Shown here one piece after another: positions 4,065-27,646 of a stretch of DNA of 35,865 nt; position 1 is the stretch's first letter, and each line of letters starts with the position of its first letter. The position numbers and the translations under genes were made by a program. Under the pieces are notes generated by a model. It was not told where the DNA came from and did not search any database. It was given only the letters and a program-made list of their open reading frames with translations. Origin of the DNA: an uncultured Prevotellaceae bacterium. GTDB lineage: Bacteria; Bacteroidota; Bacteroidia; Bacteroidales; Muribaculaceae. The stretch lies in assembly GCA_900318065.1 (NCBI GenBank), contig ONIY01000043.1, positions 1-35,865 on the forward strand, given 5' to 3'.

Positions 4065-6044
4065 TTATTCAATCGTTGTAATGGATAACGGATTTTCTAT
4101 GGCTTTAATTGCGCACTGCTTGGCGATGGCGCGGTTTTCCTCGCTCATGCCCACGGGCGCGCCGTTGATTTCCTGGATGTTCTTCGCCTTGAGCCATTGC
4201 TGGTCCACCCAGGTGGTGTCGGTCCACACCTGGTCGCTCAGCCCGTAGCGGGCAAGCAGGGCGGCGGTGGCGGCGTAGGCCTCTATCAGGCAGGGAATGC
4301 CATCCTGAAGGTGCAGGTAGTCAAAGAGATGCCCCTGGTCGCCCAGCGAGTCGAGTGGCGTGGTGCGTGCATTCTGGATGGCAGTGCCGCAGGGCAGCAG
4401 CAGTTCTATTCCAGTGTCGCTCTGCATGTTGCGCACGCATTGCAGTATGCGCTCAAACATCTGCACGCTTGTTGTGTCGGGTGCCAGGCGTGGCAGGTTG
4501 TCGGGGTAGGACGGGGTGATGAGCCAGGCATACTGGTGTTGCCACGGGGCCTTCTCGTCGAGCCACTCGATAATCTGGTTGAGATAGGGCTGATAGGTGC
4601 TGTAGTCGCGCGAGGCGTTGGACTGCTGCTGGAGCATTATCACGTCCCACGGCTGGCTGGCGATAATTTGCGTCATGGGGGCGTTGTGGCTGGCATTCCA
4701 GGGGCGAGCGCCGTGCGACCAAAAGCGGGTGAAGCTGGTGGCAACCCCCGGGCTTGTGGGGGCGTGGGTGGTGGAGTCGAGTGCATTGTAGAAGTCGTTG
4801 AGCGCTCCGCTGCCCAGGTACATGATGTCGAGTTTGAGATACACCTGCGGCGCCACCGCATTCATGATGAAAGGCACATAGGACAGCGCGTCGAGCGAGT
4901 AGCTGTTGCCTATCGAGAGCACCCTCAACGTGTCGGTGACAACGTGTCGTTTCACATCAACTGTCACATCTTTATAATAGACGGTGTCGTTGCCCTCCTG
5001 CTGCAGGTAGAGCACCGCTTGCGTGGTGGTTCCTATGCAGTAGGTCTTGTTGTCGAGGGTGATTGCCGCGTTGCCGTTGTAGTGGGATGGCGCAGCGCCC
5101 GCCATGATGCCCGCGCCTGGGGCAATGGTGGCGGTCTCGTTGTCGTGAGCCACTATCTCCATCTCGCTGGCAACGGGGAGGGTGATGGTCGACACAATCC
5201 TCTGGGTGACACTGCCGTTGTGCAGTGAGGCAAAGCAATAGCCCTTGCTGCCCACGCCACTGGTGCTGCCGCTGAGCATGGCGGTGTAGATCTCGGTTAC
5301 GTCGGCCGAGGTAACACTGCCGTCGCCGTTGGCATCGCCAGGGACGTCGCTGTTTTCCAGCAGGTGAGTATAGACCTGAGTGACGTCGGCAGCAGTGACA
5401 ATGCCGTCGCAGTCCACGTCGAGCAGGCTGGCGCTCAGGGGCTCGGAGTCGACATCGACAAGGGTCTTAAACTGGTGGGTGAGCGAGGAATAGGCTTGGG
5501 CGCAGCTGGCATCGATACACAGCAGCGAGCCACTGGGCACCTGTTGCAGCACCATGATGGCATTGGGCACGTGACTGAAGACGTGTTCCACGGCATCGCA
5601 GCCCGAGAATGCATCGTCGCCAATGCTTTGCAGCGTTGACGGTAGCGACAATGCCGTGATGCCCGAGCAGCCGGCAAAGGAGCGGGCGCCCACGCGCTTC
5701 AACCCCTCAGGGAGGACTATAGCGCCCTGCAGGGCATCACACCCGGCAAACGCCTCGTCGCCTATCTCCTGCAGCGACACCGGCAGCGCCACGCCAGTGA
5801 GCAGCTGGTCGCCAGCAAGGGCGCGGTTGGCGATGGCGGTCACCGTGTAGACTCTGCCCTCGTGCAGCACCTTGTGTGGCACCACAAGAGTGGGGGAGGC
5901 GTCGTGTCCCACCAGGCACAGCGTTGAGTCGCCCTCGCGAATAGTGTAGAAGACACCATCGCAAGCAATGGTGTCGCCAGCCTCTATTGCACTTGATGGC
6001 AGCGCAATAGCACACGCCGCCATCAATAGCAATATCCTATGCAT
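4065..6044 (-). CDS. Secreted LRR (BspA-type) - dockerin - DUF4886 SGNH-like hydrolase
   Basis: About 659 residues. It begins with a signal peptide (MHRILLLMAACAIALPSSA); the in-frame ATG at 6065 would add seven residues. Approximate order: BspA-type LRR_5 repeats to residue 165 (LPEGLKRVGARSFAGCS); a dockerin-like pair at 205-260 (DVDCDGIVTAADVTQVY, DANGDGSVTSADVTEIY); a beta-rich linker; then a DUF4886 domain from residue 370 opening with LRVLSIGNSYSLDALSY. The Ser in GNSYS and the D-H pair in LFDYLHLQDG fit an SGNH/GDSL esterase active site. An adhesion module, a Ca-binding pair and a hydrolase in one chain suggest a surface enzyme acting on a glycan or its acyl groups. The substrate is unknown. 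It follows the Sel1 gene by about 20-40 bp, in one operon. Confidence 0.85.
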   Translation of the reverse strand: MHRILLLMAACAIALPSSAIEAGDTIACDGVFYTIREGDSTLCLVGHDASPTLVVPHKVLHEGRVYTVTAIANRALAGDQLLTGVALPVSLQEIGDEAFAGCDALQGAIVLPEGLKRVGARSFAGCSGITALSLPSTLQSIGDDAFSGCDAVEHVFSHVPNAIMVLQQVPSGSLLCIDASCAQAYSSLTHQFKTLVDVDSEPLSASLLDVDCDGIVTAADVTQVYTHLLENSDVPGDANGDGSVTSADVTEIYTAMLSGSTSGVGSKGYCFASLHNGSVTQRIVSTITLPVASEMEIVAHDNETATIAPGAGIMAGAAPSHYNGNAAITLDNKTYCIGTTTQAVLYLQQEGNDTVYYKDVTVDVKRHVVTDTLRVLSIGNSYSLDALSYVPFIMNAVAPQVYLKLDIMYLGSGALNDFYNALDSTTHAPTSPGVATSFTRFWSHGARPWNASHNAPMTQIIASQPWDVIMLQQQSNASRDYSTYQPYLNQIIEWLDEKAPWQHQYAWLITPSYPDNLPRLAPDTTSVQMFERILQCVRNMQSDTGIELLLPCGTAIQNARTTPLDSLGDQGHLFDYLHLQDGIPCLIEAYAATAALLARYGLSDQVWTDTTWVDQQWLKAKNIQEINGAPVGMSEENRAIAKQCAIKAIENPLSITTIE

Positions 6045-6085
6045 TATGCTTTGTGCATTATGCATCCCACAATATCTTTTTGTGA

Positions 6086-6823
6086 TTATTTGCCCATTTC
6101 TTGCAGGAGCTCCTTGTAGGCTCTAAGGGCATCCTTGTCGCCTTGCTTGGCGGCTTTCTCAAACCATTCCAGGGCTTTGTTGAGGTTCTTCTCAACGCCC
6201 TCGCCATTGTAATAAGACAGTCCCAGGTTGAGCTGTGCTGCGGCATCGCCCTGGTTGGCAGCCTTGCGGTACCATTCCACCGCCTTCTCGCGGTCTTGCT
6301 GCACGCCACGGCCCTCGTCATAGCAGATTCCCATGCAGCGCTGTGCTGCTGCGAGCCCTTGCTGCGACGCCTTGGTGAACCAGTAGATTGCCTTGCCGTC
6401 GTCTTGTGGCTTGCCCTCGCCGTTGAAGTAGCAGTTGCCCAAGCTCAGTTGCGAAGCGGCGTCGCCCTGGTTGGCAGCCATCTCATACCAACTGGCTGCT
6501 GTAGTGAAGTCTTTCTTTGAGTCGTAGATGTCGCCCAGGTTGTACTGGGCAATGACGTTGCCCTTCTCGGCAGCTTTCTTATACCACTGGATGGCCTTGT
6601 TCAGGTCGCGGGGTGCATTCTCGCCCTTCTGGTAGAAATAGGCGAGCAACAGTTGTGCTCCCTCGTCGCCCTTGCTGGCCTTCATGTAGCACTCGCGGGC
6701 CTCACCAGTGAGCCCGGCAGGCACGCCACTTGTTGTCTTTTTCTTCTTAGCATCGATGTTCCCGGCAAAGAGCAGCGCTAATGCCAGTACTGTGATCAGG
6801 TGTCTGAAAGCGATTCGTTTCAT
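6086..6823 (-). CDS. Secreted Sel1-like (TPR) repeat protein
   Basis: A 245-residue protein with an N-terminal signal peptide (MKRIAFRHLITVLALALLFA) and about five 36-residue Sel1 repeats covering residues 45-240. The repeat units read like AVEWYRKAANQGDAAAQLNL and end in GLSYYNGEGV. Sel1 repeats form alpha-solenoids that hold protein partners; enzymatic activity is not expected. A lysine run (KKKK) follows the signal peptide. It is the first gene of a likely operon with the LRR-dockerin and serine hydrolase genes downstream, and has its own good promoter at 6939-6969. Confidence 0.93.
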   Translation of the reverse strand: MKRIAFRHLITVLALALLFAGNIDAKKKKTTSGVPAGLTGEARECYMKASKGDEGAQLLLAYFYQKGENAPRDLNKAIQWYKKAAEKGNVIAQYNLGDIYDSKKDFTTAASWYEMAANQGDAASQLSLGNCYFNGEGKPQDDGKAIYWFTKASQQGLAAAQRCMGICYDEGRGVQQDREKAVEWYRKAANQGDAAAQLNLGLSYYNGEGVEKNLNKALEWFEKAAKQGDKDALRAYKELLQEMGK

Positions 6824-6938
6824 AATGGATGTATGTAATTTTAGTTGTTAAACAATCATGGGGTAGAGGTGTGGCAACTATAGCAACGTGTGTGGCAATA
6901 ATTGACGTGTCTTGCCCACTAAATAACACTTTAGATGG

Positions 6939-6969
6939 CAAAGATATAAAAAATATTTTAAATAGCAAA
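6939..6969 (-). promoter_or_regulatory. Promoter of the Sel1 gene and its operon
   Basis: On the minus strand TTTG (6966-6969) is followed by 19 bp and TATCTTTG (6939-6946), matching the Bacteroidetes -33/-7 pattern. The leader to the ATG at 6823 would be about 110 nt and shows no riboswitch that I recognise. Confidence 0.7.
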
Positions 6970-7062
6970 TTTACGGTGAGAAGAACATGGCACGAGTGCT
7001 CCATGTGAGACTGCGCCTTGGAGTGGCATGAGTGCCTTCCCGGGGCAATGGGGAGAGGGGGA

Positions 7063-9214: not shown

Positions 9215-10495
9215 ATGAAACGTATTTTTCTGTTATTATGGGCGGTAGTGATGGTAGCGTGCGCCTGGGCGCAAACTACAGTGCTTGACGACTTTAAGGA
9301 AGACATACACCGCAGTGCCAACAACTACCAGGCTTACCCCGACGGCAACTTGCCTGCATTGACACCTTGCCCCGAGGGCTACAAGCCGTTTTTCATGAAT
9401 CACTATGGCCGTCATGGCAGCCGATGGCTCATCAATCCTAACGACTACATCATACCCGTGGAACAGCTGAGCAAGGGCGAGCGCAATGGCAAGCTCACCC
9501 GCCGTGGCAAGGAGGTGCTCGACGCCTGCCGCAAGATGCTCGACGCTTCCCAGATGAGGCTGGGCGAGCTGAGCGACGTGGGTGCCGAGCAGCATCAGCG
9601 CATAGCACGCCGCATGTTCCAGAACTTCCCCGAGATTTGGGAGGGCGACGTCAGGGTAGATGCCCGTTCCACAGTGGTGATTCGCTGCATCTTGTCGATG
9701 CTCAACGCCACCCAGGTGCTCAAGTCGCTCAATCCTCGCCTCAACATCACCACCGATGCCAGCGAGCACGACATGTACTACATGAACTACCGCGACACCG
9801 TTGCCATTGCTGCCCAGCAGGCATCACGGCCTCTTGTCAATGAGCTGAAGGACAAGATTTTCACTCCCAAGCGCTTGGAGAAGATGACCTCGCGCTTGTT
9901 CAACGATAAGAAGTTTGTGCGCGACAGCATCGATAGTTTCAAGTTTGAATACACGCTTTTTGATGTGGTGAGCAACATGCAGAGTCATCATGCCTTCGAC
10001 GGCATCGACCTTTATACTGGAGTGTTCACCGTCGACGATGCCACCAGTTTCTGGACCTATAACAACGCGCGATGGTATATCTACTCGGGCAACACCTCAT
10101 TGAACAACCACACGGGCGCCAGGGCGCACAGGCACCTGCTGCGCAACTTCGTCGAGGCTGCCGATGTGGCTATCGCCAGCGGCACCAGCAGTGCCACGCT
10201 GCGATTTGGTCATGAGAGTGTGGTGTTGCCCATGGTGTGCCTCATGGGTCTTAACGGCATGGACTATGACACGAGCGACCTCTCGACACTTGCCGAGCAC
10301 TGGCAGTCCTACAAGGTGTTCCCCATGGCTGCCAACATCCAGATGGTGTATTACCGCAAGGCGGGTAGCGATGATATCCTGGTGAAAATACTGCTCAACG
10401 AGCGCGAGGCAACATTGCCCATCGCCAGCGACTGCGCGCCCTATTATCACTGGACCGACGTGCGCCGCCATTTCCTCACCCGCATCGATGAATGA
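9215..10495 (+). CDS. Secreted histidine-type acid phosphatase (clade 2, phytase/MINPP-like)
   Basis: A 426-residue protein with a signal peptide (MKRIFLLLWAVVMVACAWAQ). The phosphate-binding and nucleophile motif HYGRHGSRW gives R66, H67 and R70, with H67 the phosphorylated histidine. The distal motif is GHESVVLP (H333, E334), resembling the HAE motif of multiple inositol polyphosphate phosphatases rather than the HD of AppA phytase. The likely role is periplasmic or surface release of phosphate from phytate or other organic phosphates. It converges on the PAP2 gene with only 3 bp between the stop codons and begins a run of four phosphatase genes. Exact substrate uncertain. Confidence 0.9.
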   Translation: MKRIFLLLWAVVMVACAWAQTTVLDDFKEDIHRSANNYQAYPDGNLPALTPCPEGYKPFFMNHYGRHGSRWLINPNDYIIPVEQLSKGERNGKLTRRGKEVLDACRKMLDASQMRLGELSDVGAEQHQRIARRMFQNFPEIWEGDVRVDARSTVVIRCILSMLNATQVLKSLNPRLNITTDASEHDMYYMNYRDTVAIAAQQASRPLVNELKDKIFTPKRLEKMTSRLFNDKKFVRDSIDSFKFEYTLFDVVSNMQSHHAFDGIDLYTGVFTVDDATSFWTYNNARWYIYSGNTSLNNHTGARAHRHLLRNFVEAADVAIASGTSSATLRFGHESVVLPMVCLMGLNGMDYDTSDLSTLAEHWQSYKVFPMAANIQMVYYRKAGSDDILVKILLNEREATLPIASDCAPYYHWTDVRRHFLTRIDE

Positions 10496-10498
10496 GGA

Positions 10499-12061
10499 TT
10501 AATTCCCTAGAATGATATTGTAGACGATGGTGACATCGCTTGAGGTGATGTTGCCGTCGCCGTTGAGGTCGCCGTTGATGATGGCGCTGTCGTCGTTGTT
10601 GAGCAGCCAGTTGTAGAGCACGGTGATGTCGGTGCTGTTGACGGCACCATCGCCGTTGACGTCGCCCCACGAGGTGAGCGACAGGTATTCGCGCTTGGCA
10701 TTGTCGAAGAGCTTGACTGTTGACTGCTCGTTGCGCAGCTTGCCCAGCGTGCAAGCCGCCATGAGCCTTGCCGCGGCAACGTCGCTGGCATAGGCCATTC
10801 CTTTTATCACACGGCTTTCGCCATATTCCATTCCTCGCAGGAGAATGCTGTCCTGGTCGTGGGTAATGACCTCGGCAAGGGCGAGCGCTACTCCCCATCC
10901 CACCAGTGCGTGGCGGGAAGGATAGGACGACTCACCTGTAAGGCTCCACTCAACGCCACCATAGGGGTAGGTCTCCTTGAATTGGGAGTAAGGCCTGCGC
11001 CTGAAGTGTTCCCGTTTGTATATATTGGTCTGACTGTTGAGCAGGAAGGAGAGTGTTTTGATGAGAAAGGCGATGTGTGGTGTCTCGCTTTGAGAGATGT
11101 TGATGCCAGTGCACTCGTTGAAGATGTCGATGAAATACTGGTCGTTGAGTGCCATGTCGGCATTGGCAAGCTGCCCGCGCTCGGTAGAGTCGCGAAGGGG
11201 TTTGCATGCCCAGTATCTCTCAAGGTCGCCCAGGAAGAGGTAGTCGCTGGTGGTTGAAGGATTGTCCAGGATTCTTGTCATCACAGGGAACTCCCGTGGC
11301 GAACCCTTGATCTGGCTCACGGTGATGCCTCTCATCGCCGAGTACTCATTTTGTGCCGCCTTGATGTCGCGTGAGAACTGATTGCTGGCTCTCGCCTTGG
11401 CAATCGCTGCCGTGGCGCACATTGTGGCGGCATCCACGTCGCTCTGCCAGTGGGCTCCAGTAATCACGCTGCTGGTGCCATATTCCACTGCGCGTCTCAC
11501 TATCGTGTCCTGAAGAATGGGAAACGCCTGTGCCAGGGCCAGGGCAGTGCTCATGCAATAGGTCATGGGCGAGGAGGGATAGCTGGCGTTGGGCTGCAGG
11601 GTGCCAGGGGTGTTGAACTCGCCCCAGGCAGTGTCGTTCATCAGCACGTAGGGTCGCTTGCGTGGATTGGCTTGGACAAAGGGACTGGCATAGTTTGCTC
11701 CCGTGTTGCCAGCACGACTCATGAGTCGATAAATCGCCGGGGTGTTTTCCTGTGATATCTCCACTCCCAGCACCTGGCTGTAGATGGAGCACATGCGCTC
11801 AATGCCAGCAAGCGACTCCCAGCTTGCCTGCTCGCCACGCGGAGTGTTGCGCAAGGTCTTGCCCCACACCCACCATGTCATGTCGCAGGCAAAGGTGGCA
11901 CTGGCAGTGTCGAGCGGCTCTTCCAGTAATGCCAACTGCGCTGGTGTGGCAACGTCGCCCACATAGCTGTCGAGCGGGCTGGCGGCACTAGATGTTAATG
12001 CTCCTGCCAGCAGGAACATTAAAACCATGATGGTGTGAGTATGTGGAACTTTGCTTGTCAT
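10499..12061 (-). CDS. Secreted double-PAP2 acid phosphatase paralogue with degenerate active sites and a C-terminal dockerin
   Basis: A 520-residue protein: N-terminal signal peptide, two tandem PAP2 (class A non-specific acid phosphatase-like) domains at about 60-225 and 280-440, and a dockerin-like pair at 465-520 (GDVNGDGAVNSTDITVLY, GDLNGDGNITSSDVTIVY). The family motif is K-x6-RP, PSGH, SR-x5-H-x3-D. Domain 1 has V129 for Lys, PSSP for PSGH (P165) and SS for SR (S198), but keeps nucleophile H204. Domain 2 keeps K349, PSRH (H384) and R417, but has A423 where the nucleophilic His should be. Neither domain has a full site. It lies 33 bp after its intact paralogue on the same strand. It may be a binding or scaffold protein, or use residues shared between domains. 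Confidence 0.88.
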   Translation of the reverse strand: MTSKVPHTHTIMVLMFLLAGALTSSAASPLDSYVGDVATPAQLALLEEPLDTASATFACDMTWWVWGKTLRNTPRGEQASWESLAGIERMCSIYSQVLGVEISQENTPAIYRLMSRAGNTGANYASPFVQANPRKRPYVLMNDTAWGEFNTPGTLQPNASYPSSPMTYCMSTALALAQAFPILQDTIVRRAVEYGTSSVITGAHWQSDVDAATMCATAAIAKARASNQFSRDIKAAQNEYSAMRGITVSQIKGSPREFPVMTRILDNPSTTSDYLFLGDLERYWACKPLRDSTERGQLANADMALNDQYFIDIFNECTGINISQSETPHIAFLIKTLSFLLNSQTNIYKREHFRRRPYSQFKETYPYGGVEWSLTGESSYPSRHALVGWGVALALAEVITHDQDSILLRGMEYGESRVIKGMAYASDVAAARLMAACTLGKLRNEQSTVKLFDNAKREYLSLTSWGDVNGDGAVNSTDITVLYNWLLNNDDSAIINGDLNGDGNITSSDVTIVYNIILGN

Positions 12062-12094
12062 TCTAAAACTGGTTGAGCGTTAATGGTTTTTCGG

Positions 12095-13474
12095 TCACTT
12101 GCCTTGTTGCTGGGATTTCTTGAGCACATATTCTTGCCTGGCATCGTTGAGCATAGTGACAAACCATGAGTCGTTGTGATACTTGGCAAGCACGCACGCT
12201 GCCATCACCATTCCTGCCTGCACATCGCTGCTGTAGTGATAGCCCACAATCACGCGGCTGAGTCCAAACTCACGGCCACGCTTGAGCAGCTCGTTCTGGC
12301 AGTCGGGCATGACCTCGGCAAGTGCCAGAGCTATGCCCCAGCCTATGATGGCGTGCCCCGAGGGATAGGATGAGTCGGCATAGTACTCCTGCTCCTCGCT
12401 CGGGATTGCCGTGGGTGTTCCCAGCTCCACATAGGGGCGCTTCCTGAACCAGTAACTCTTCATTGCAGTGCCCTCGAGCCCCAGGCGCAGCTTGAGCATC
12501 TTGAGCAGTAACGATATCTTTGGCGTCTCGGTGCTGGAGATGGGAATGTCGATGCATGGCGCAAAGCCGCTCATGAGTGCCTGGTCGTCGAGGCTGGCAT
12601 CGGCAATGGCTATCTGGCCCCTGAGGCTGTCGCGCTCGGCCTTTGCGTTCCAGTAGAGGGCGACATCGCCCACATGCTCTGGTGAGGTGGTCGAGTAGGG
12701 GGCGGGTATGATTTTATTGGCTTGCGGAGAGTTGGCAGTTGTCACTTCGGTGAGGGTCAAGCGTTTGAGGTCGGCATATTCCTCGCGTGCCGCAATTATG
12801 TCGGCGGCAAAGTCGGGCTTGGCATGAGCCCGGGCAATGGCTGCCGAGGAGCAGAGCATCGCGGCGTCGACGTCGCTTTGCCAGTGCGCTCCCACAATCA
12901 CTCGGCTGATGCCATACTCATATCCACGGTTCAGGATGGTGTCTTGCATGTGAGGCGCCATCTCGGCGAGAGCCAGTGCTGTGCCCCATGCAAAGGAGGT
13001 GTGCGACGAGGGGTAGGAGCTATTGGTCTCAAGGTTGTCGTGAGAGTCATATTGTCCCCACACGGGTTCGTTCATGAGCAGGAAAGGCCGCTTGCGAAAG
13101 TACTGGCTCTTCATCCTCACCACGGCGTTGGCGCCAGTGTTTCCTGCGCGCAGCATCAGCTTGTAGATGGCCGGCGTGGTTTCCTCCGAGATGTTGATGC
13201 CCAGCACGTCGCTGTAGATGGTGCACATGCGCACGATGCCATATTTCGACTCCCAGCTTGCCTGCTCGCCACGCGGGGTGTTGCGCAGGCTCTTTCCCCA
13301 AATCCACCTGGCATAGTCGCCAATGAAAACGGTGCTCGCCGAGTCGGGCGGCAGTGGCATGTAGGCTATGGGGTCGGGGGCCTCTTCGAAGGTGAGATAA
13401 TAGTCGACAGTGGCGGCAAGTGAACAATTTGCCACCAGCGCTATCAATAATATGGAAAAGAGTCTTTTAATCAA
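12095..13474 (-). CDS. Secreted double-PAP2 acid phosphatase, both domains intact
   Basis: A 459-residue protein with a signal peptide (MIKRLFSILLIALVANCSLA) and two PAP2 domains at about 50-215 and 270-430. Domain 1 has K122, RP at 129-130, PSSH (H158), SR at 190-191, H197 and D201. Domain 2 has K339, RP at 346-347, PSGH (H374), SR at 406-407, H413 and D417. Both thus carry the complete class A acid phosphatase site. It should hydrolyse phosphomonoesters outside the cytoplasm. The start is a TTG at 13474: an in-frame stop lies two codons upstream and no ATG lies near. It belongs to a run PafA-PAP2-PAP2 on the minus strand, separated from the PafA gene by a heptamer array. Confidence 0.9.
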   Translation of the reverse strand: MIKRLFSILLIALVANCSLAATVDYYLTFEEAPDPIAYMPLPPDSASTVFIGDYARWIWGKSLRNTPRGEQASWESKYGIVRMCTIYSDVLGINISEETTPAIYKLMLRAGNTGANAVVRMKSQYFRKRPFLLMNEPVWGQYDSHDNLETNSSYPSSHTSFAWGTALALAEMAPHMQDTILNRGYEYGISRVIVGAHWQSDVDAAMLCSSAAIARAHAKPDFAADIIAAREEYADLKRLTLTEVTTANSPQANKIIPAPYSTTSPEHVGDVALYWNAKAERDSLRGQIAIADASLDDQALMSGFAPCIDIPISSTETPKISLLLKMLKLRLGLEGTAMKSYWFRKRPYVELGTPTAIPSEEQEYYADSSYPSGHAIIGWGIALALAEVMPDCQNELLKRGREFGLSRVIVGYHYSSDVQAGMVMAACVLAKYHNDSWFVTMLNDARQEYVLKKSQQQGK

Positions 13475-13491
13475 AGCTTAATGTTTTTTTG

Positions 13492-13555
13492 GGGGATCGG
13501 GGATGGGGGATCGGAGATCGAGGATAGGGGATGGAGGATAGGGGATCGGGGTCGG
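13492..13555. repeat. GGGGATN heptamer array
   Basis: About nine consecutive 7-bp units fill the gap between the PafA-like and PAP2 genes: GGGGATC, GGGGATG, GGGGATC, GGAGATC, GAGGATA, GGGGATG, GAGGATA, GGGGATC and a degenerate last unit. Related heptamers occur at 1536-1577. The array sits just upstream of the TTG start at 13474. Confidence 0.88.
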
Positions 13556-13563
13556 AAAATTAA

Positions 13564-15054
13564 TTATCGGTCGTTTTTTACGTCGAAGGTGATTGCCTCG
13601 CCCACGCAGGCGTTGGGCATCTGGATGTGTAGCATGGCGCAGATGGTGGGTGCTGCGTCAACGATGCGGGTGGGCTTGCTGGTTGCCCCATGTGGCACGT
13701 GCCATCCCATGAACACGAGTGGGATGTGGCTGTCGTAGGGGTTCCACGCACCATGGGTAGTGCCCTTGTAGTCTTTTTTTACCTTGAATGGGAGGTATCC
13801 GGGATGCGTCATGACCACGATGTCGCCGCTGCGTCCACGGTGGTAGCCGTTGATGAGGCGTTCCTTGAGGATTGCTGGAATGCTGGCTTGCTCTATGTTG
13901 TCGTAGTCGACGGCAACCACCAGTTCCTCCTCGTTGTTGAGCACGTCGAGGGCGGCTTTCTTGACTTGTGCAACGTCGGCGCCCACGCTGTCAATCTTGT
14001 CATAGTCGAGATAGATGCGGTAGTCATAGATTGCCTTGATGGCATTAGGCACGCCACACTCGTTGTAGATGGCAAGGTTCATGTTCTTGCGGGCGGTGCT
14101 GGCGTCCCAGCCGCCAGCGGGCTGGTTGTGCTCGTTCATGAAGTTGGGGTTGTGGGCAGCGCCATGGTCGGCACTCAGGAATAGCAGGTAATTGCCGCGT
14201 CCCACTTGCTTGTCGAGTTCTTTGAAGAAGTGCGCCAGTTCTTTGTCGAGTTGCATGTACACCTCATAGTTCTCACGGCCGCGGGTGCTGTAGGTGTGCC
14301 CAATGGCATCGGTCGACGAAACGCTCACGCACAGCATGTCGGTATACTTGCCACGTCCCAGCTTCTCGTTGTTGAGAATGGCCTCGGCCATGCGGAAGGT
14401 GTAGGTAACGCCCTGGTTGCTGGTGTTGAGGTCTACCTTGGGCTCGGTGTTGTACTGACGGTTGAACTTCTCCACCCAGTTGGGGAGGCGGTCCATATAA
14501 TAGGTGCTGGTGACAAAGTGCCCAACGTTGCTGTCCCACCAGTAGGCGGCATCGGCACTGTGTCCCGCTGGGAGAATAGCGGCACGAGGCTTGATGGCTA
14601 CGCCATAGACCTTGCAGTCGAAGTCGAGCGCCTGCTTGAGCTCGTCGCCAATGGTTGTCGCCCTGAGGTTGCGGGGCGAGTTCATGCCGGCTTTACTGTC
14701 GGTTCCCACGCCCTCCACGCTGTTGTCGTCGGTGCTCGACACGGGTTTGCCGTCAATCATGAAGCCATTGCCGGCAATGCCGTGAAAGAAGGGCACCGAG
14801 CCGGTGTAAAGGCTTGTGTGACCTATTGCTGTGACCGTGGGAATATAGTTTATCATTGTGTTCTCACAGCTGTAGCCCTCGTTGAGCAGTCGCTTGATGC
14901 CGTCGGGACCATAGTCTTCGTAGTAGTAATAGAGGTAGTCCCAGCGCATCTGGTCTACAACAATTCCCACTACCAGTTTAGGACGGTCGATTTGTGCTGT
15001 TGAGGCAAGAGCAGCACAGCACACGGCTAGTATCAATAGAAATCTTTTCATCAT
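13564..15054 (-). CDS. PafA-type alkaline phosphatase (type I phosphodiesterase/nucleotide pyrophosphatase superfamily)
   Basis: A 496-residue secreted enzyme with signal peptide MMKRFLLILAVCCAALASTAQ. Metal and active-site motifs of the alkaline phosphatase superfamily are present: VVDQMRWDY (D34); PTVTAIGHTSLYTG, which contains the nucleophilic Thr that distinguishes PafA from the Ser of PhoA; VSSTDAIGHTYS; and FLSADHGAAHNPNF. The length and arrangement fit PafA, the phosphate-insensitive phosphomonoesterase of Bacteroidetes. The role is to release phosphate from phosphomonoesters in the periplasm. The start could be either of two adjacent ATGs (15054 or 15051). It is the first gene of the minus-strand phosphatase run and has a good promoter 31 bp upstream. 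Confidence 0.93.
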   Translation of the reverse strand: MMKRFLLILAVCCAALASTAQIDRPKLVVGIVVDQMRWDYLYYYYEDYGPDGIKRLLNEGYSCENTMINYIPTVTAIGHTSLYTGSVPFFHGIAGNGFMIDGKPVSSTDDNSVEGVGTDSKAGMNSPRNLRATTIGDELKQALDFDCKVYGVAIKPRAAILPAGHSADAAYWWDSNVGHFVTSTYYMDRLPNWVEKFNRQYNTEPKVDLNTSNQGVTYTFRMAEAILNNEKLGRGKYTDMLCVSVSSTDAIGHTYSTRGRENYEVYMQLDKELAHFFKELDKQVGRGNYLLFLSADHGAAHNPNFMNEHNQPAGGWDASTARKNMNLAIYNECGVPNAIKAIYDYRIYLDYDKIDSVGADVAQVKKAALDVLNNEEELVVAVDYDNIEQASIPAILKERLINGYHRGRSGDIVVMTHPGYLPFKVKKDYKGTTHGAWNPYDSHIPLVFMGWHVPHGATSKPTRIVDAAPTICAMLHIQMPNACVGEAITFDVKNDR

Positions 15055-15084
15055 GAAGTGTATTTTAGTGGATATTTCAATCCC

Positions 15085-15115
15085 CAAAGTTAGTCATAAT
15101 ACTTTAAATGTGCAA
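15085..15115 (-). promoter_or_regulatory. Promoter of the PafA-PAP2-PAP2 run
   Basis: On the minus strand TTG (15113-15115) is followed by 20 bp and TAACTTTG (15085-15092). The start codon is about 25 nt beyond the predicted start of transcription. Confidence 0.7.
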
Positions 15116-15133: not shown

Positions 15134-17149
15134 TTACCTCACAATCACCTTCTTGCCGCCAATGATGTAGATGCCCTGTGGCAGGCCCTGTGTGGCGGTA
15201 GCTGGGTCAACGTTCTGCTTGATGAGCTGGCCTTGAGTGTTGTAGACGTTGACGGGAGTGCTGGACTCGTCGGCAGTGATGTTGTCGATGGCAGTGCTGC
15301 CCATCAGGTTGAGGCTGCGCTGGTGCCTGCGGTACACAATCTCTTGCTGGTCGACGAAATTAATCTCCTGAAGGTCAATCTTGTCGTTGATGCCTATGAG
15401 GGACGTTGAGCTTATCTCGAGAGTGAGGAGTGCCCCCTCATAGCCGTCGATGTCATCGCCAGCAGGAGAGTAGCACCACAGCGAGTAGTAGTTGGGGCTC
15501 ACCTGCTTGAAGTGCAGCTCATGTCCCAGTGCTCGGCTGGTGAGCGTGGCGCTGTTGATGCTGATGTGGCTTGGCGTTGAGATGTCGAGCTGGAAAGCAG
15601 TGTAGTTGATGGTGTTCTCGAGAATTATGTTGAGGGAGACTGTCTTGCCCGTTATAGCGTCGCCATAGCCGTCGATGAGGTCGTCAAAATAGGTGTGATA
15701 AGGCTTGTTGAAGGGTTCGGTGCTATTGATGATGTTGTAGATCGACACAATGTCGCCCACGTTGACTTCGCCGTCGCCGCTCACGTCGGTGAGACTGGTG
15801 TTGATGCCCTGAGTGTTGCCGTCGGTCAAGAATAGCCGCTCGGCGACAGCGTCGATGGTGTTGACAAAGCCGTCTTCATTAACGTCGCCTCGCAACGTGG
15901 CGTTGCCAATGAGGAAGTTCATCCACTGGTCGGCAGCTTTATAGGCATTGGCAACATCTTTGTTCACGTTGAGCCTCACCTGGCTCTGGTTGATGCCTGC
16001 CCACACGTCGTCGCCCAGCTCAGGAACCTGAAGCGGCTGGGCGCTGATCTCGTTGAGACCTGTCATTCCCGCCATGGCGCGCGTGCCAATGCGGTAGACG
16101 CCATAGGGGATGTTGATTGTAGAGTGCTGTGACTGGTTGTAGAGGGCATAGTCGCCTATGTCGCCCAGGTGCTGGGTCATGAAGCCCGCGGGATTGTTGA
16201 TGTTGTCGCAACCGGCAAGCATATAGTCGGGCAGGTAGGTGAGTGTGGAGGGCAGCTCCACATTGTTGAGGTTCTTGTTGTAGAACAGCGTGCCCTCGTC
16301 GAGTTGCTTCACGTGGGATGGCAGCTCCAGGCGGGTGATATTGGTCTTTGCCAGTGCCCACGCTCCCAGGTGCTTGAGCCGTGGAACTCGGGAGAAGTCA
16401 AATTTCTTGAGGCCCGACATGTAGAACGCCTTGTCGCCTATCTCTTCCATGAGCGAGCCGTCACTAATGCTCACGCTCTGCAGTGAGGTGCAGCCTCTGA
16501 AGGCACCAGCGCCCACGCTCACCACGTTGTGGCCTATCGACACGCTGGAGAGTTGCTTGCAGTCGGCAAACGCCCCGTCGCCTATCTTGAGCGGCGAACC
16601 AATGCTGATGACCACCTTGGCGAGCTTGTCGCAATGGGCAAAGGCGTTGGCACCCAGGTGACTGGTGGCGTAGCTTAGGGTCACATTAGTCAACTTCTTG
16701 CATGAGTTGAAGGCATCGTCGCCAATGCTCTTCACCGAGCCAGGGAAGGTGATGCTGGTGATGCCAGTGCCCGCCAGGGCGCCATAGTCTATGGCTACCA
16801 GGTTGCTGGGCAGGGTCACCGACTGTAGTTTCACCAGTCCCATGAGTGCGCAGTGGGGCAGGGTGTTGGCATTAAAATTAAGAACCCCACTCAGGAACCC
16901 GTCGTCGACGGTTCCTGAGTAGGCCTCTATAGTAGCGTTGGTTAGTTCTAGAGTCTTGAGATTGGTGAGTTCATCGGCAATGAACTTGAAGTCTCGTGCA
17001 TCGATGGTTCCGTTGATGGTGAGCGATGTGATATTGTGGTCGGGCACCACTGTTGCCAGCTTGCCGGCAGTGGTGGTTACCGTTATTGCATGGGCATGCA
17101 GTGCGGCAACCATGACCAGCAATAAAATTATGCGTGCTCTAAACCACAT
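15134..17149 (-). CDS. Secreted BspA-type LRR protein with dockerin, cohesin-like domain and sorting tail
   Basis: About 671 residues. A signal peptide (MWFRARIILLLVMVAALHAHA) follows the ATG at 17149; a GTG two codons earlier is less likely. Residues 25-400 are LRR_5/BspA repeats (GDDAFNSCKKLTNVTL, IGDGAFADCKQLSSVSI). Residues 415-480 hold a dockerin-like pair (GDVNEDGFVNTIDAVAERLF, DVSGDGEVNVGDIVSIYNII). Residues 500-600 form a beta-sandwich (KTVSLNIILENTINYTAFQL) resembling cohesin, an inference from strand pattern. The last 40 residues (VYNTQGQLIKQ to GGKKVIVR) resemble a type IX secretion sorting domain. A surface adhesin or scaffold is likely. Close paralogue of the next gene upstream, from which it is 52 bp away. 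Confidence 0.87.
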   Translation of the reverse strand: MWFRARIILLLVMVAALHAHAITVTTTAGKLATVVPDHNITSLTINGTIDARDFKFIADELTNLKTLELTNATIEAYSGTVDDGFLSGVLNFNANTLPHCALMGLVKLQSVTLPSNLVAIDYGALAGTGITSITFPGSVKSIGDDAFNSCKKLTNVTLSYATSHLGANAFAHCDKLAKVVISIGSPLKIGDGAFADCKQLSSVSIGHNVVSVGAGAFRGCTSLQSVSISDGSLMEEIGDKAFYMSGLKKFDFSRVPRLKHLGAWALAKTNITRLELPSHVKQLDEGTLFYNKNLNNVELPSTLTYLPDYMLAGCDNINNPAGFMTQHLGDIGDYALYNQSQHSTINIPYGVYRIGTRAMAGMTGLNEISAQPLQVPELGDDVWAGINQSQVRLNVNKDVANAYKAADQWMNFLIGNATLRGDVNEDGFVNTIDAVAERLFLTDGNTQGINTSLTDVSGDGEVNVGDIVSIYNIINSTEPFNKPYHTYFDDLIDGYGDAITGKTVSLNIILENTINYTAFQLDISTPSHISINSATLTSRALGHELHFKQVSPNYYSLWCYSPAGDDIDGYEGALLTLEISSTSLIGINDKIDLQEINFVDQQEIVYRRHQRSLNLMGSTAIDNITADESSTPVNVYNTQGQLIKQNVDPATATQGLPQGIYIIGGKKVIVR

Positions 17150-17201
17150 GGACACTAACCATTAAAAATGCATATAAGAAATAGGTGTAAAGCAATGCGC
17201 T

Positions 17202-19199
17202 TTATTTCACAAGCACCTTCTTGCCGCCCACGATGTAGACGCCTGCTGGCAGGCCCTGAGTGGCATTGTTGCGGTCAACACCCTGGCGCAGCAGCTGGCC
17301 ATTGACGCTATAAACGTCGACAGGACCATTGTCGCTGTTGTCGATGCTGATGTCCTTCACACCTGTGGTGTTGCTCACCTCAACGGCGAGCTCGCCTATC
17401 ATGTGAGTCCTCTCGCAAGGCTCTACTGCAATGATGTTGCTAATGTTGATTGTCTCATTGCCGCCAAAGTCGTCACCGGCTTTCACCTTGATGGTGAGCA
17501 GTGAGCCCTCGTTGCCGCCAATGGTGGTGTTGCTGCTCTTGTAGATGACGATTCTCCACTTGCCGTTCTCAATCTCGTTGAAGCCTATCACGGCACCGCT
17601 GGTGCGGCTGGTGGCGGCTACCTCGTCGATGGTGAGTCCTTGCGGCATGTCAACATCGAGCTGCATGGCAGTGTAGAGTGCTGTGTTGTCGAGGTCGAGA
17701 GTCATCTCGTGGGTGCTTCCCTGCTCGATGGTGAAGTCTTGGGCGCTCATCTTGTCGCTGCCATCGTTCACAACCTGGTTGCGACCCGATACATTCTTAG
17801 AGCCCAGGATTATGTTGTAGACCATAGTGATGTCGGCAGCAGTGATGGAGCCGTCGCCGTTCACGTCGGCAGTGGCCTCAAACTGATAGGAGAGTCCCAG
17901 CAGGATGTCGTAGATTGCTGTCACGTCGGCAGCGGTAACCGAGCCGTCTTGGTTGACGTCGCCAGTAATCGATGGGTTGTCGAGCATGAAGTTTTGCCAC
18001 TGTGGTGCGTTGAGATAGTCGTTGAGGGCCTGGGTGGGCACTGTGAGAGGGATGATGGCCTGGTTCACGCCAGCCCACACCTCGTCGCCCAGCGCTGGCA
18101 CTGTGGCAGCGCGGCTCTCGATGGCTTGCATCTGTATCATTCCCGCCATGGCACGAGTGCCAATGTATTGTGTGGTGGCAGGAACAATCACACTGGTGGC
18201 TGGGGTGTTGTAGAGGGCGTAGTCGCCTATGTACTTGGCGTGCTCGCCCAGAACGTTCTCGTTGGCCACAGCAGTACCTGCCAGCAGCAGTGGGGCAATG
18301 GTGTCGCTGGTATTGTTGGGGATAAACGACGACAAGTCGGCGGCATAGTAGAACGCGCCTTTATTGAGCTGTGCAGTAGTGTTGGAGATTTGTGCGCTCA
18401 CTTGCTTGGTCTGGGCAAATGCCCACTGGTCGACGGTGGTGAGCGACTGTGCTGTAGCAAAGTCAAAGTTGGTGATGCCAGAGCTCAGGAAAGCCTCTTT
18501 GCCTATGCTCTGCAGGTTGTTCTGTCCTGAGAAGGTGATGTCCTGCAGGCGTGTGGTGCCCTTGAAGGCTTGGTCGCCAATGGCTGTTACATTCTCTCCC
18601 AGAGTCACATTGATGATGTGGCTGCAGCCCAGGAACGCCCCCTTGGCAATTGTGAAGCTTGCGGCAGGCTCAATGGTCACTCTTGTGAGGTCGACGCTCT
18701 TGGAGAACGCCCCTTCGCCCAATGTCTTGATTCCTGCTGGCAGCGACACGTTTTTAAGTCCTGTTGAAGAGAAGGCATAGGCGCCTATCGTCTCAAGGCT
18801 AGCTGGGAACAAAATAGCGGTGAGCTTGGTGCAGCCAGCAAAGGCTGCAGTGCCTATCGCCTTGATGTTCTCGGGCAGTACCACCTGCTCAATGTTCATG
18901 TCGAAGAACGCCATCTCGGGGATGGCATCGGCTTGATAGTCGAGCTCGTTGGCAAAAAGTGGCTTTGCACTCTTGTATTTCACGATGGTTGCCTGCGACA
19001 GGTTGATGCTCGTGAGTTGAGGCATCTGTTCTGAGATGTACTTGAAGTCTCGGGCATCGAGCGAACCGGTGATGGTGAGAGCAGTAAACGACTCTCCGGC
19101 AACGAGGTTGTGCAACTCGCCTGGAGTACATTCAACGTTCAAGGCCCACGCCATTGCGCAGCTTGCCATTAAAACTATGGATAATATTATTCTCTTCAT
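17202..19199 (-). CDS. Secreted BspA-type LRR protein with dockerin, cohesin-like domain and sorting tail (paralogue)
   Basis: About 665 residues with signal peptide MKRIILSIVLMASCAMAWA; the ATG at 19199 fits it exactly, and a longer reading to 19238 would bury it. LRR_5 repeats run to about residue 400. A dockerin-like pair lies at 413-466 (GDVNQDGSVTAADVTAIYDI, ADVNGDGSITAADITMVYNI), better conserved than in its neighbour. Residues 490-600 carry the cohesin-like sandwich (EMTLDLDNTALYTAMQLDVD, then NEGSLLTIKVKAGDDF). The tail VDVYSVNGQLLRQ to GGKKVLVK is the sorting-type C-terminus. Together with the neighbour it forms a duplicated surface-protein pair, probably binding host or dietary ligands through the LRR part. 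Confidence 0.88.
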   Translation of the reverse strand: MKRIILSIVLMASCAMAWALNVECTPGELHNLVAGESFTALTITGSLDARDFKYISEQMPQLTSINLSQATIVKYKSAKPLFANELDYQADAIPEMAFFDMNIEQVVLPENIKAIGTAAFAGCTKLTAILFPASLETIGAYAFSSTGLKNVSLPAGIKTLGEGAFSKSVDLTRVTIEPAASFTIAKGAFLGCSHIINVTLGENVTAIGDQAFKGTTRLQDITFSGQNNLQSIGKEAFLSSGITNFDFATAQSLTTVDQWAFAQTKQVSAQISNTTAQLNKGAFYYAADLSSFIPNNTSDTIAPLLLAGTAVANENVLGEHAKYIGDYALYNTPATSVIVPATTQYIGTRAMAGMIQMQAIESRAATVPALGDEVWAGVNQAIIPLTVPTQALNDYLNAPQWQNFMLDNPSITGDVNQDGSVTAADVTAIYDILLGLSYQFEATADVNGDGSITAADITMVYNIILGSKNVSGRNQVVNDGSDKMSAQDFTIEQGSTHEMTLDLDNTALYTAMQLDVDMPQGLTIDEVAATSRTSGAVIGFNEIENGKWRIVIYKSSNTTIGGNEGSLLTIKVKAGDDFGGNETINISNIIAVEPCERTHMIGELAVEVSNTTGVKDISIDNSDNGPVDVYSVNGQLLRQGVDRNNATQGLPAGVYIVGGKKVLVK

Positions 19200-19340
19200 G
19201 TCAAAAAAACGTTTTTTCAATAAAAAATGATGTGCCATCTTGGGTAGATGGGTGGTCTTACTAATTTAAACGTTGAATGGGTACACTTTATTATATTAAG
19301 GGAAAATTAATTGAATAAAATGCCTCATCACGATGCTGGC

Positions 19341-24606: not shown

Positions 24607-24624
24607 GCGCCTGCGGCGCGGGTG

Positions 24625-24685: not shown

Positions 24686-24686
24686 G

Positions 24687-24737
24687 CCTTTGTCCTTTGT
24701 CCTTTGTCCTTTATCCTTCCACGTTCCACGTTCCACC
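24687..24737. repeat. CCTTTGT and TTCCACG heptamer arrays
   Basis: Units CCTTTGT x3 and CCTTTAT (24687-24714) are followed by TTCCACG x2 and TTCCACC (24717-24737), ending 3 bp before the TatD start codon at 24741. The TTTGTCC-phase module matches 1608-1660. Confidence 0.92.
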
Positions 24738-24740
24738 ATC

Positions 24741-25514: not shown

Positions 25515-25534
25515 CACTCTCCACGCATCGCATA

Positions 25535-27646
25535 ATGACCAAGAAAAACATCCTACTGCTGCCTATGCTCATGATGTTGAGCGCCTTCACCGCAGGGGCT
25601 CTCGACATCCCTCAAGGCACATTCTATTTCGACAATTCGCTCACGAAATACACGGTGGTGAAATTTGTCTTTGGCAGTTACTCTAACCCCGAGAGCTATG
25701 TCATGAGCATGACCCATGAAGACGATGACCTGTGGAGCATCACCATCCCCGAGACGGTGACGGGGATGTACCGCTATTGCTTTGCCGAGACGTCGCTCGC
25801 CGATGGCATGTACAACGAGACGTTCCCCGACCTCAAGGACCGCATCAGCAACACGCTGGGCGAGAAACGCACCACCACTTGCGAACTCTCTATCCCCGTG
25901 GGGTGGGTGTTCACGCCCACCAGTGGCAGCAACTGGGCGACGGGCATGTGGGTGAAGCCGGGCGACGCCATGTCCTACTCGGGCACGCTGCCGGTGATGT
26001 TTATCAACACCGAGGGCGCTGTGCCCATTACCTCTAAGGAGGAATATGTCTATGCCGACTATTACGTTGACAATATGGGCATTGAAGGCATCGAGAATGT
26101 GGGGTCGCAGGATGCGCCGCAGCTCATGGAGATACGCGGGCGGGGCAACTACACCTGGAGCGACTTTGACAAGAAGCCTTACCGCATCAAGCTCGACCAG
26201 AAGACACCGTTGCTGGGCATGAAGCGCAACAAGCACTTCGCTCTGCTGGCGCACCCCGACGACAAACTGGGATTCCTGCGCAACACGGTGGGTTTTGAGC
26301 TAAGCAGGCGGCTGGGGCTGGCCTGGACACCGGCGCAGCAACCAGTGGAGGTGGTGCTAAACGGTGACTATCTGGGGCTTTACATGCTCACCGAGATAAT
26401 TCGCGTGGAGCCCGACCGCGTCAACATCACCGAGCAGGCCAACTATGAGACTAACCGCTTTCTCATCACCGGCGGATGGCTGGTGGAGATTGACAACTAT
26501 CTGGAAGAGGAGCAGGTTCGCACCGTGGAGGGCAACGGCAACAGCATATGGTCGACCTACAAGTCGCCTGAGTTGCTTAGCGATGAGCAGCGCACCTACC
26601 TCACCGGGCTTATCAATACTGCCAACGCCGCCATCTATGTGAGCGACAAGACCAACAACAGCTGGGAGAAATATATCGACCCCGATACCCTCGCATGCTT
26701 CTACCTCACGCAGGAGTTGCTCGACGACACCGAGTCGTTCCACGGCAGCTGCTATTGGCACAAGGAGAACGGCGACAGCACCAAGATTATGTTTGGGCCC
26801 GTGTGGGACTTTGGCAATGCCTTCCACCGCACTCCCAACCGCTTTATCTATGACCAGCCCGCATTCACGCAGACGTGGATTGGCGAGATTGCCAAGTTCC
26901 CTCATTTCCAGGAAATTGTGCTCAAGCACTGGAACCGCTATGTGCGCATTCACCACAAGTCGATGGACGAGTTCATAGATGATTTTATTGGCAAGATTTA
27001 CTATGCCGCGATGAGTGATGCGGCACGGTGGCCGCAATATGGCAACCCCGACATTCTCAACGACCGCGACACTTTCAAGAGCTACTTCCACAGCAAGTAC
27101 TCATGGCTCGCGAGCCAGTGGGGTGAGCCCAGCGACGTGCCAGGCGACGTGAACCTCGATGGCAGCGTCAACGCAGCCGATGTCACTCTGCTCTACGACA
27201 TCCTGCTGGGCGGGATGCCACTCGACGACGAACTCTCCATCCTTGCCGACGTCAACCACGACGGCAGCGTCACGTCGGCCGACGTGACTACGCTCTACGA
27301 CATCATCCTGGGATTTTATGTGCCCGAGACTGGCATAGTGATAAATGTGCAGTGCGACATTCAGCCACACCTATATTCGTGGACCTACTTCGACGGTGTG
27401 AACGTAATACTAAACGGCGACTGGCCCGGGGCAACGATGACCGAGACGCGCACCACCAGCGACGGCACTGTGTGGTGGACGAAGCGCTTTGACACCGACT
27501 ATGATTCCATCAACATAATCTTCAATGCCGGAAATAGCCAGCATCAAACCACCAACATCGAAGGCCTCACCACAGGCAACCACTACTTCATCTACGACGG
27601 CAACAAAACCTACCACGACGTCACCTCACAATACAGCAACGAGTGA
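25535..27646 (+). CDS. Secreted CotH-kinase family protein with dockerin and starch-binding-like module
   Basis: A 703-residue protein with signal peptide MTKKNILLLPMLMMLSAFTAG. An N-terminal beta domain (25-130) is followed by a CotH kinase domain at about 150-520: MEIRGRGNYTWSDFDKKPYR, GLYMLTEIIRVEPDRVNI and MFGPVWDFGNAF, the last holding the metal-binding Asp. A dockerin-like pair lies at 535-593 (GDVNLDGSVNAADVTLLYDI, ADVNHDGSVTSADVTTLYDI). Residues 597-703 resemble CBM26-type starch-binding modules (VNVILNGDWPG, then WWTKRFDT), and similar modules occur in the amylase downstream. CotH proteins are ATP-using protein kinases in spore coats; the role in Bacteroidales, outside the cytoplasm, is unknown. 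Possible substrates are partner proteins on the surface. Confidence 0.88.
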   Translation: MTKKNILLLPMLMMLSAFTAGALDIPQGTFYFDNSLTKYTVVKFVFGSYSNPESYVMSMTHEDDDLWSITIPETVTGMYRYCFAETSLADGMYNETFPDLKDRISNTLGEKRTTTCELSIPVGWVFTPTSGSNWATGMWVKPGDAMSYSGTLPVMFINTEGAVPITSKEEYVYADYYVDNMGIEGIENVGSQDAPQLMEIRGRGNYTWSDFDKKPYRIKLDQKTPLLGMKRNKHFALLAHPDDKLGFLRNTVGFELSRRLGLAWTPAQQPVEVVLNGDYLGLYMLTEIIRVEPDRVNITEQANYETNRFLITGGWLVEIDNYLEEEQVRTVEGNGNSIWSTYKSPELLSDEQRTYLTGLINTANAAIYVSDKTNNSWEKYIDPDTLACFYLTQELLDDTESFHGSCYWHKENGDSTKIMFGPVWDFGNAFHRTPNRFIYDQPAFTQTWIGEIAKFPHFQEIVLKHWNRYVRIHHKSMDEFIDDFIGKIYYAAMSDAARWPQYGNPDILNDRDTFKSYFHSKYSWLASQWGEPSDVPGDVNLDGSVNAADVTLLYDILLGGMPLDDELSILADVNHDGSVTSADVTTLYDIILGFYVPETGIVINVQCDIQPHLYSWTYFDGVNVILNGDWPGATMTETRTTSDGTVWWTKRFDTDYDSINIIFNAGNSQHQTTNIEGLTTGNHYFIYDGNKTYHDVTSQYSNE

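What the first reader, a model, noticed from the sequence alone, without database searches (positions are those of the whole stretch)
4065..27646. Five dockerin-bearing secreted proteins in one locus, two with an adjacent cohesin-like domain: a possible surface assembly
Dockerin-like duplicated Ca-binding loops (DVNGDGSVTAAD type) are directly visible in an LRR-DUF4886 protein (4065-6044), a PAP2 paralogue (10499-12061), two LRR proteins (15134-17149, 17202-19199) and a CotH-kinase protein (25535-27646). In cellulosomes and R. bromii amylosomes dockerins bind cohesins. The beta-sandwich after the dockerin in both LRR proteins resembles cohesin by strand pattern. LRR proteins could thus be both scaffold and partner for a phosphatase-like, a hydrolase-like and a kinase-like subunit. 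Such an assembly in Bacteroidales is not something I can point to as described.
Basis: partly seen in the sequence, partly recalled or inferred. Interest (0 to 1): 0.75.

Follow-up and report, generated by a model that had tools for sequence, protein, structure and literature searches.

The report
Likely cohesin–dockerin surface assembly in Bacteroidales
A gut-type Bacteroidales bacterium carries about eighty secreted proteins with a plug-like dockerin domain, and two neighbouring surface proteins in this stretch carry the only socket-like cohesin domains found in its genome, so they may hold the other proteins on the cell surface.

The parts
17202..19238 (-).
17805..17963 (-). Dockerin of LRR2, full genome dialect (DVNQDGSVTAADVTAIYDILLG / DVNGDGSITAADITMVYNIILG)
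17400..17762 (-). Cohesin-like sandwich of LRR2
17229..17363 (-). T9SS type A sorting domain of LRR2
   Evidence: TIGR04183 25.2 bits against cut-off 23; 20.4 bits, below the cut-off, for the annotated protein; no PF18962 match
15134..17155 (-). LRR1: secreted LRR_5 protein with dockerin, cohesin-like domain and T9SS-type tail
15728..15889 (-). Dockerin of LRR1; its first repeat departs from the genome dialect (DAVAERLFLTDG)
15332..15652 (-). Cohesin-like sandwich of LRR1
   Evidence: found with the LRR2 sandwich alone at E 4.2e-12; profile A1, which includes this sequence, E 3.2e-28
15161..15280 (-). T9SS type A sorting domain of LRR1
   Evidence: TIGR04183 26.1 bits; 20.7 bits, below the cut-off; PF18962 15.6 bits against 27
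10499..12061 (-). PAP2-repeat protein with C-terminal dockerin (dockerin 10508-10666): likely client
25535..27646 (+). CotH protein with dockerin (27140-27295) and CBM26: likely client
4065..6065 (-). LRR-dockerin-DUF4886 protein (dockerin about 5289-5420): likely client

Best explanation
The two LRR proteins are the surface anchors of a genome-wide cohesin-dockerin display system. Each is exported by the Sec pathway and the type IX secretion system and held at the surface through its C-terminal sorting domain (inferred from the tails and from the presence of SprA). Its cohesin-like domain presents a binding face to which the C-terminal dockerins of about 80 secreted proteins (CotH proteins, C10, S8 and M6 peptidases, amylases with CBM26, LRR proteins, a PAP2 phosphatase) can attach with calcium. 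The dockerins share one sequence dialect, so any client could take any socket. With only two cohesins per genome this works as one-client-at-a-time display, like that proposed for Ruminococcus albus, not as a multi-enzyme scaffold; congeners with six-cohesin proteins may build larger assemblies. Shown here: dockerins, cohesin fold and homology, T9SS-type tails and SprA, C-terminal placement, the shared dialect, conservation of the LRR pair. Inferred: binding in trans, surface location, and how clients without sorting tails reach the surface.
For: Cohesin homology: profile A1 (79 domains) against PDB, all 13 hits with E<=0.02 are cohesin entries (for 2ozn, named only NagJ there, by its match to the same region as 2o4e and by recall); 25 of 79 members match PF00963 singly at E<=1, best 3e-7. 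Fold: Foldseek rows 1-43 and VIA-align rows 1-44 of 50 shown are cohesin or scaffoldin entries. Own genome: two believable A1 domains, both in the window LRRs. Dockerins: 64 of 83 ORFs have the dockerin within 9 aa of the C-terminus; 71 of 78 with an intact 5' end have a signal-peptide-like start by a home-made rule. Dialect: T14, Y17 and L21 kept in 74-76 of 77 dockerins in both repeats, N18 in 42 and 53 of 77; repeats more alike within than between genomes, 0.60 against 0.22 for G000. Anchor: TIGR04183 tails in both LRRs, in 3 of 83 dockerin ORFs in all, and SprA at 2719 bits. Conservation: LRR1-LRR2 side by side in L117, L126, L139, L141 and L142, fused in L140. Scaffolds in relatives: L116 six cohesin-like + dockerin; L164 8 and 5 cohesins, both with Por_Secre_tail, L166 4 with the tail, L165 10. 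Co-occurrence: 15 of 15 order-sample genomes with >=5 dockerin hits have cohesins, 8 by A1, the other 7 by PF00963; A1 in 8 of 15 against 16 of 232.
Against: No binding evidence of any kind. The window cohesins do not match PF00963. Two cohesins for 83 dockerins is a poor ratio. AF2 places Doc and Coh of LRR2 in a confident fixed arrangement (pTM 0.90), which could mean that the socket is used in cis; I could not see coordinates or PAE. G001 has 30 dockerins, no A1 cohesin and no PF00963 hit; it is 85% complete. A1 domains also occur in genomes with no Pfam dockerin (5 of 24 in the order sample, 11 of 33 in the family sample). The any-dockerin association is inflated, because Doc-Coh proteins carry both domains. 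PF00963 was not searched in dockerin-poor genomes of the order sample, so 15 of 15 has no control for the 7 found that way, and the model rings in 2 of 14 control genomes, in one over its cut-off. The T9SS tails pass their cut-off only in the six-frame scan, not in hmmscan. How client proteins without sorting tails cross the outer membrane is unexplained.
Confidence: 0.55

Rival explanations
1. Cis clasp: the dockerin and cohesin of each LRR protein bind each other, or pack as one rigid module, inside the same chain (or head to tail between identical chains) and form a calcium-stabilised stalk between LRR domain and sorting tail. The other dockerins bind something else.
For: Doc directly before Coh recurs in 33 Doc-Coh pairs collected from relatives, including genera with few Pfam dockerins; AF2 pTM 0.90 for the 208-residue Doc-Coh pair and 0.78 with the tail, more than a freely placed dockerin should give; LRR1's dockerin has left the genome dialect in its first repeat.
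Against: LRR2's dockerin keeps the full client dialect; single-cohesin and multi-cohesin proteins without a dockerin beside each cohesin exist in relatives; pTM is not an interface measure and the face is unknown.
Confidence: 0.25
2. The dockerins are not partners of these cohesins. The conserved C-terminal dockerin works as a calcium-dependent folding, export or retention tag recognised by an unknown partner, and the two LRR cohesin-like domains are adhesin sandwiches.
For: 83 dockerin ORFs against 2 cohesin-like domains; dockerins sit where sorting tails usually sit, and only 11 TIGR04183 matches exist genome-wide at E<=0.01, 8 of them over the cut-off; G001 has 30 dockerins and no cohesin found.
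Against: Cohesin fold and homology; 22 of 23 distinct genomes with >=5 dockerin hits have cohesins: 15 of 15 in the order sample and 8 of 9 in the family sample, the own genome being in both; relatives carry multi-cohesin proteins.
Confidence: 0.15
3. A true multi-enzyme scaffold exists in this species, but its multi-cohesin protein lies in the missing 6% of the genome or is too divergent for the profile; the LRR pair is then a side component.
For: Completeness 93.85% in 97 contigs; congener G060 has a six-cohesin protein.
Against: Congener G109 (96% complete, about 30 contigs) also has only two A1 domains, in two LRR-sized ORFs on one contig that resemble the window LRR proteins; profile A1 finds nothing else believable at E<=1 in the own genome.
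Confidence: 0.1

Closest known systems
Candidatus Stygibacter (Cloacimonadota) predicted cellulosome-like complex, PMC8542988 (passages and section 7 read)
   Same: C-terminal dockerins on secreted peptidases and glycosidases; cohesin protein with a conserved C-terminal domain for attachment to its own surface
   Different: There one 3,755-aa scaffoldin with tandem cohesins and CBM2/CBM3; here two single-cohesin LRR proteins, each with its own dockerin, and about 80 clients
'Planctosome' of Nemodlikiaceae, PMC6461901 (passages read)
   Same: Predicted non-cellulose cohesin-dockerin assembly with peptidases; adaptor protein holding both a dockerin and a cohesin
   Different: Planctomycetes; hyaline-repeat adaptor and lamin-tail anchor instead of LRR and T9SS-type tail
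Ruminococcus albus / R. bromii pattern, many dockerins and few cohesins, as described in PMC6118326 (passages read)
   Same: Dockerin excess over cohesin; in R. albus a single cohesin proposed to anchor dockerin enzymes on the cell surface
   Different: Clostridiales; no LRR-dockerin-cohesin anchor in the passages read
Bacteroidetes dockerins in rumen genomes, PMC7260996 (passages and section 7, part 1, read) and PMC6071333 (passages and Table 1 read)
   Same: Rumen Bacteroidetes with dockerins; PMC7260996 suggests their cohesins may be too distant to recognise; PMC6071333 lists two Bacteroidetes bins with cohesins, bin 136 (5 dockerins) among those with tandem cohesins
   Different: No cohesin family, surface anchor or client set is described in the parts read

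Membership tests
Dockerin type I (PF00404) | Profile match over the curated cut-off | tested here: met
   5 of 5 window proteins over 22.9 bits
Dockerin type I (PF00404) | Duplicated Ca loop D-x-N/D-x-D-G...D followed by a helix | tested here: met
   Both repeats in 77 of 85 dockerin segments split automatically; two helices in the LRR2 model
Dockerin type I (PF00404) | Binds a cohesin | not testable with these tools
   No complex prediction or assay available
Cohesin | Cohesin jelly-roll fold | tested here: met
Cohesin | Sequence homology to known cohesins | tested here: met
   Family profile: 5n5p E 4.1e-7, 13 of 13 hits at E<=0.02 are cohesin entries; 25 of 79 members match PF00963 at E<=1
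Cohesin | Window copies recognised by the curated PF00963 model | tested here: not met
   No match; hence called divergent cohesin-like, not filed under PF00963
Cohesin | Ca-dependent dockerin binding | not testable with these tools
   Needs assay or complex prediction
Cellulosome | Scaffoldin with several cohesins in the same genome | tested here: not met
   Own genome (93.85% complete): two cohesin-like domains in two proteins
Cellulosome | Dockerin set dominated by plant-wall glycosidases | tested here: not met
   Pfam on 83 dockerin ORFs: LRR_5 11, CotH 10, C10 peptidase 7, amylase 4, S8 3, M6 3, GHL10 2, GH53 1
T9SS cargo (type A CTD) | C-terminal sorting domain over the cut-off | tested here: inconclusive
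   26.1 and 25.2 bits against 23 in the six-frame scan, but 20.7 and 20.4 in hmmscan of the annotated proteins; PF18962 15.6 against 27 for LRR1, none for LRR2
T9SS cargo (type A CTD) | T9SS translocon in the genome | tested here: met
   SprA TIGR04189 2719 bits; other T9SS genes not tested

The most novel reading that the evidence does not exclude
A Gram-negative display system in which the type IX secretion system exports a minimal pair of LRR-dockerin-cohesin anchors, and dozens of secreted proteins that lack their own sorting tails are caught at the surface, or carried out with the anchors, by cohesin-dockerin contact. The anchor's own dockerin works in cis as a gate or links anchors into chains. 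Each lineage has its own dockerin dialect matched to its cohesins, and multi-cohesin versions evolved in other Bacteroidales.
Probability: 0.25. Interest if true: 0.85.

Novelty: new variant of a known kind. Interest (0 to 1): 0.62.

Why it matters
A 2020 bovine rumen catalogue states that the role of dockerins in Bacteroidetes is unclear, because no cohesin was recognisable in those genomes, and offers 'too distant to recognise' as one possibility (PMC7260996, section 7, part 1). This work supplies a concrete divergent cohesin family, an anchor protein with a plausible surface tail, and about 80 candidate clients in one genome, so the question can be settled with a few purified domains. If binding holds, Bacteroidales, usually discussed in terms of Sus-type loci, also use dockerin-cohesin display, and largely for proteins other than plant-wall enzymes.

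Tried and rejected
Pfam cohesin as a detector in the own genome: zero hits at E<=1, which would have closed the case wrongly. The single LRR2 sandwich as query found only LRR1 and a weak hit with stop codons; the deeper profile found no more (its third hit, E 0.046, also has a stop codon inside).

A local five-gene complex: rejected. Dockerins are genome-wide, and around the LRR pair of G040 (38 kb read) and G060 (42 kb read) no window protein matched except by LRR or dockerin segments at E<=1e-5. A first look at six loci had flanks too short to reach CotH or DUF4886, so I widened two of them. A cellulosome proper: rejected for this genome. Chance clustering: the window's density alone has P 0.003, but the genome clusters dockerins elsewhere too.

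I could not map the Doc-Coh interface: the models come without coordinates or PAE, so pTM is the only handle; neither list of 50 rows from the fold searches showed a PDB chain aligned over Doc and Coh together with a good fit (a few Foldseek rows span over 180 columns at rmsd 6.6-8.6). The search for related loci with A1 failed for lack of conserved stretches; with the LRR2 tail it gave 4 loci. Peer et al. 2009 on noncellulosomal cohesins is not held and is known to me only by title, from reference lists. Dialects were compared on small samples for all genomes but G000 (3-17 repeats); related sequences are not independent. Dockerin counts per genome are capped at 49 and 25 scored candidates, and A1 counts at 17.
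Full report
What was checked. The window is the whole of contig C2 of a draft genome (2.985 Mb, 97 contigs, 93.85% complete). The four loci found in named genomes carry the record titles Muribaculaceae bacterium (water buffalo omasum; yak rumen), uncultured Prevotellaceae bacterium, and Porphyromonadaceae bacterium UBA4259, so a rumen-type Bacteroidales is likely. Two of them, LRR1 (15134-17155) and LRR2 (17202-19238), have a sandwich domain between dockerin and C-terminus.

How many, and where? The profile finds two believable cohesin-like domains in the own genome, both in the window LRR proteins. Against these stand 82 Pfam dockerin matches, or 83 ORFs by a home-built profile in the fetched regions plus the window, 80 of which match PF00404 at E<=1e-5. 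A few are fragments at contig ends. In 64 of 83 the dockerin ends within 9 residues of the C-terminus. Of 78 with an intact 5' end, 71 have a signal-peptide-like start and 7 of those a lipobox, by a home-made rule. Cargo by Pfam at E<=1e-5: LRR_5 in 11, CotH in 10, C10 peptidase in 7, CBM26 5, alpha-amylase 4, S8 3, M6 3, GHL10 2, GH53 1, PAP2 1 and others (42 and 41 proteins). This is not a plant-wall enzyme set.

Anchoring. SprA of the type IX secretion system is present (2719 bits). TIGR04183 tails number 11 at E<=0.01, 8 of them over the cut-off, two of these the window LRR proteins (26.1 and 25.2 bits, cut-off 23). As annotated proteins the two score 20.7 and 20.4, below the cut-off, and Pfam's own tail model gives 15.6 of 27 bits for LRR1 and nothing for LRR2. 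One further tail, on C54, lies in a dockerin ORF. So the cohesin proteins have T9SS-type tails, and 3 of 83 dockerin ORFs do in all.

One dialect. In 77 dockerins that split cleanly (8 segments dropped), the two repeats keep T14 (75 and 74 of 77), Y17 (75 and 76), L21 (75 and 75) and N18 (42 and 53) besides the calcium ligands. That positions 17 and 18 lie on the exposed helix face used for cohesin recognition is recalled, not computed. Over ten non-calcium positions, repeats agree more within than between genomes in all eight genomes sampled, for example 0.60 against 0.22 for G000 (153 repeats) and 0.64 against 0.29 for G095 (14). Shared descent could give the same. LRR2's own dockerin has the dialect; LRR1's first repeat has left it.

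Relatives. In the family sample, A1 domains are in 33 of 119 genomes and in 7 of 7 of the genus (2-16 copies). Dockerins reach 48 or 49, the scoring cap, in 7 of 7 of the genus; elsewhere 0-6, except G001 with 30, which has no A1 and no PF00963 match. LRR1 and LRR2 stand side by side in L117, L126, L139, L141 and L142 and are fused into one 1368-aa ORF in L140. With 16-21 kb read on each side of the pair in G040 and G060, none of the other window proteins used as queries (20 in all) matched except by LRR or dockerin segments. Congener G060 has a 919-aa protein with six tandem cohesin-like domains and a C-terminal dockerin. In the order sample (247 genomes) A1 is in 24 and Pfam dockerin in 56: 19 of 24 against 37 of 223 have dockerins (Fisher p 7e-10, inflated by Doc-Coh proteins); for genomes with >=5 dockerins, A1 is in 8 of 15 against 16 of 232 (p 1e-5). 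The other 7 of those 15 have 8-30 PF00963 matches each (no control in dockerin-poor genomes, and the model rings in 2 of 14 control genomes). G121 has neighbouring ORFs with 8 and 5 cohesins, both ending in a Por_Secre_tail, and the second matches PF00963 at 58.8 bits; G165 has a 10-cohesin ORF running off a contig and a 4-cohesin ORF with the tail. Both genomes have C-terminal dockerins. Sampled genomes are related, so these tests are not independent.

The rival that matters. A second AF2 run on Doc-Coh of LRR2 alone (39 rows, 37 distinct) gives pTM 0.90 at 208 residues. The cohesin is about two thirds of the chain, so a freely placed dockerin should give clearly less: AF2 sees a fixed arrangement in cis. 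Whether the contact uses the recognition face I cannot tell without coordinates. Doc directly before Coh recurs in 33 pairs, so a cis clasp or a head-to-tail chain is a real alternative.

Prior work. PMC7260996 (passages and section 7, part 1, read) states that dockerins occur in rumen Bacteroidetes without recognisable cohesins and that their role is unclear. PMC6071333 (passages and Table 1 read) lists Bacteroidetes bins with up to 11 dockerins, two Bacteroidetes bins with 1 and 2 cohesins, and names bin 136, one of these two, among bins with tandem cohesins. PMC6118326 (passages) describes the many-dockerin few-cohesin pattern and surface anchoring in R. albus. PMC8542988 (passages, section 7) predicts a scaffoldin with tandem cohesins and a surface-attachment C-terminal domain, with dockerin peptidases, in Ca. 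Stygibacter. PMC6461901 (passages) predicts the planctosome. PMC10266427 (passages) reports dockerins in Bacteroidales single-cell genomes and a cohesin only in a Christensenellales one. PMC5831590 (one passage) reports no cellulosomal parts in its Bacteroidetes genome. Passages of PMC7480376, PMC3368933 and PMC4189754 added nothing on Bacteroidales cohesins. A 2025 cellulosome review, PMC12484212, had no occurrence of the words Bacteroidetes, Bacteroidota or Bacteroidales in its main text (word search only). I found no paper on this LRR-dockerin-cohesin architecture; many subscription papers are not in that library.

Verdict. Observation confirmed; interpretation right about the fold, wrong about a local five-part complex, and untested about binding. 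Best reading at 0.55: T9SS-exported LRR anchors for a genome-wide dockerin set.

Noticed in passing
31224-32339 and 32240-35638, + strand: One secreted alpha-amylase with CBM26 and chitobiase-like C-terminal domains appears split over two overlapping frames, so there is a frameshift (mutation or assembly error) around 32240-32339; no dockerin match in either ORF.
   Followed up: no
9215-15087: A run of phosphate-ester enzymes: histidine phosphatase branch 2 (9215-10495), two PAP2-repeat proteins (10499-12061 with a dockerin, 12095-13474 without), and a phosphodiesterase/nucleotide pyrophosphatase (13564-15087).
   Followed up: no
L140:2765-6868: In UBA4259 the two LRR proteins are fused into a single ORF: LRR-Doc-Coh-LRR-Doc-Coh-tail.
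   Followed up: partly
L116:4482-7238 (- strand): 919-aa protein of a congener with six tandem cohesin-like domains and a C-terminal dockerin, next to a 576-aa Doc-Coh protein with a similar C-terminal tail: a scaffoldin layout.
   Followed up: partly
L164:5474-16738: Two neighbouring ORFs of 2467 and 1239 aa with 8 and 5 cohesins among InlB-type repeats, both ending in T9SS tails, in a Bacteroidales genome of another family.
   Followed up: partly
G312 contig C35, about 376700-387500 (not fetched): A 5621-aa open frame with at least nine listed PF00963 matches in a dockerin-rich Bacteroidales genome.
   Followed up: no
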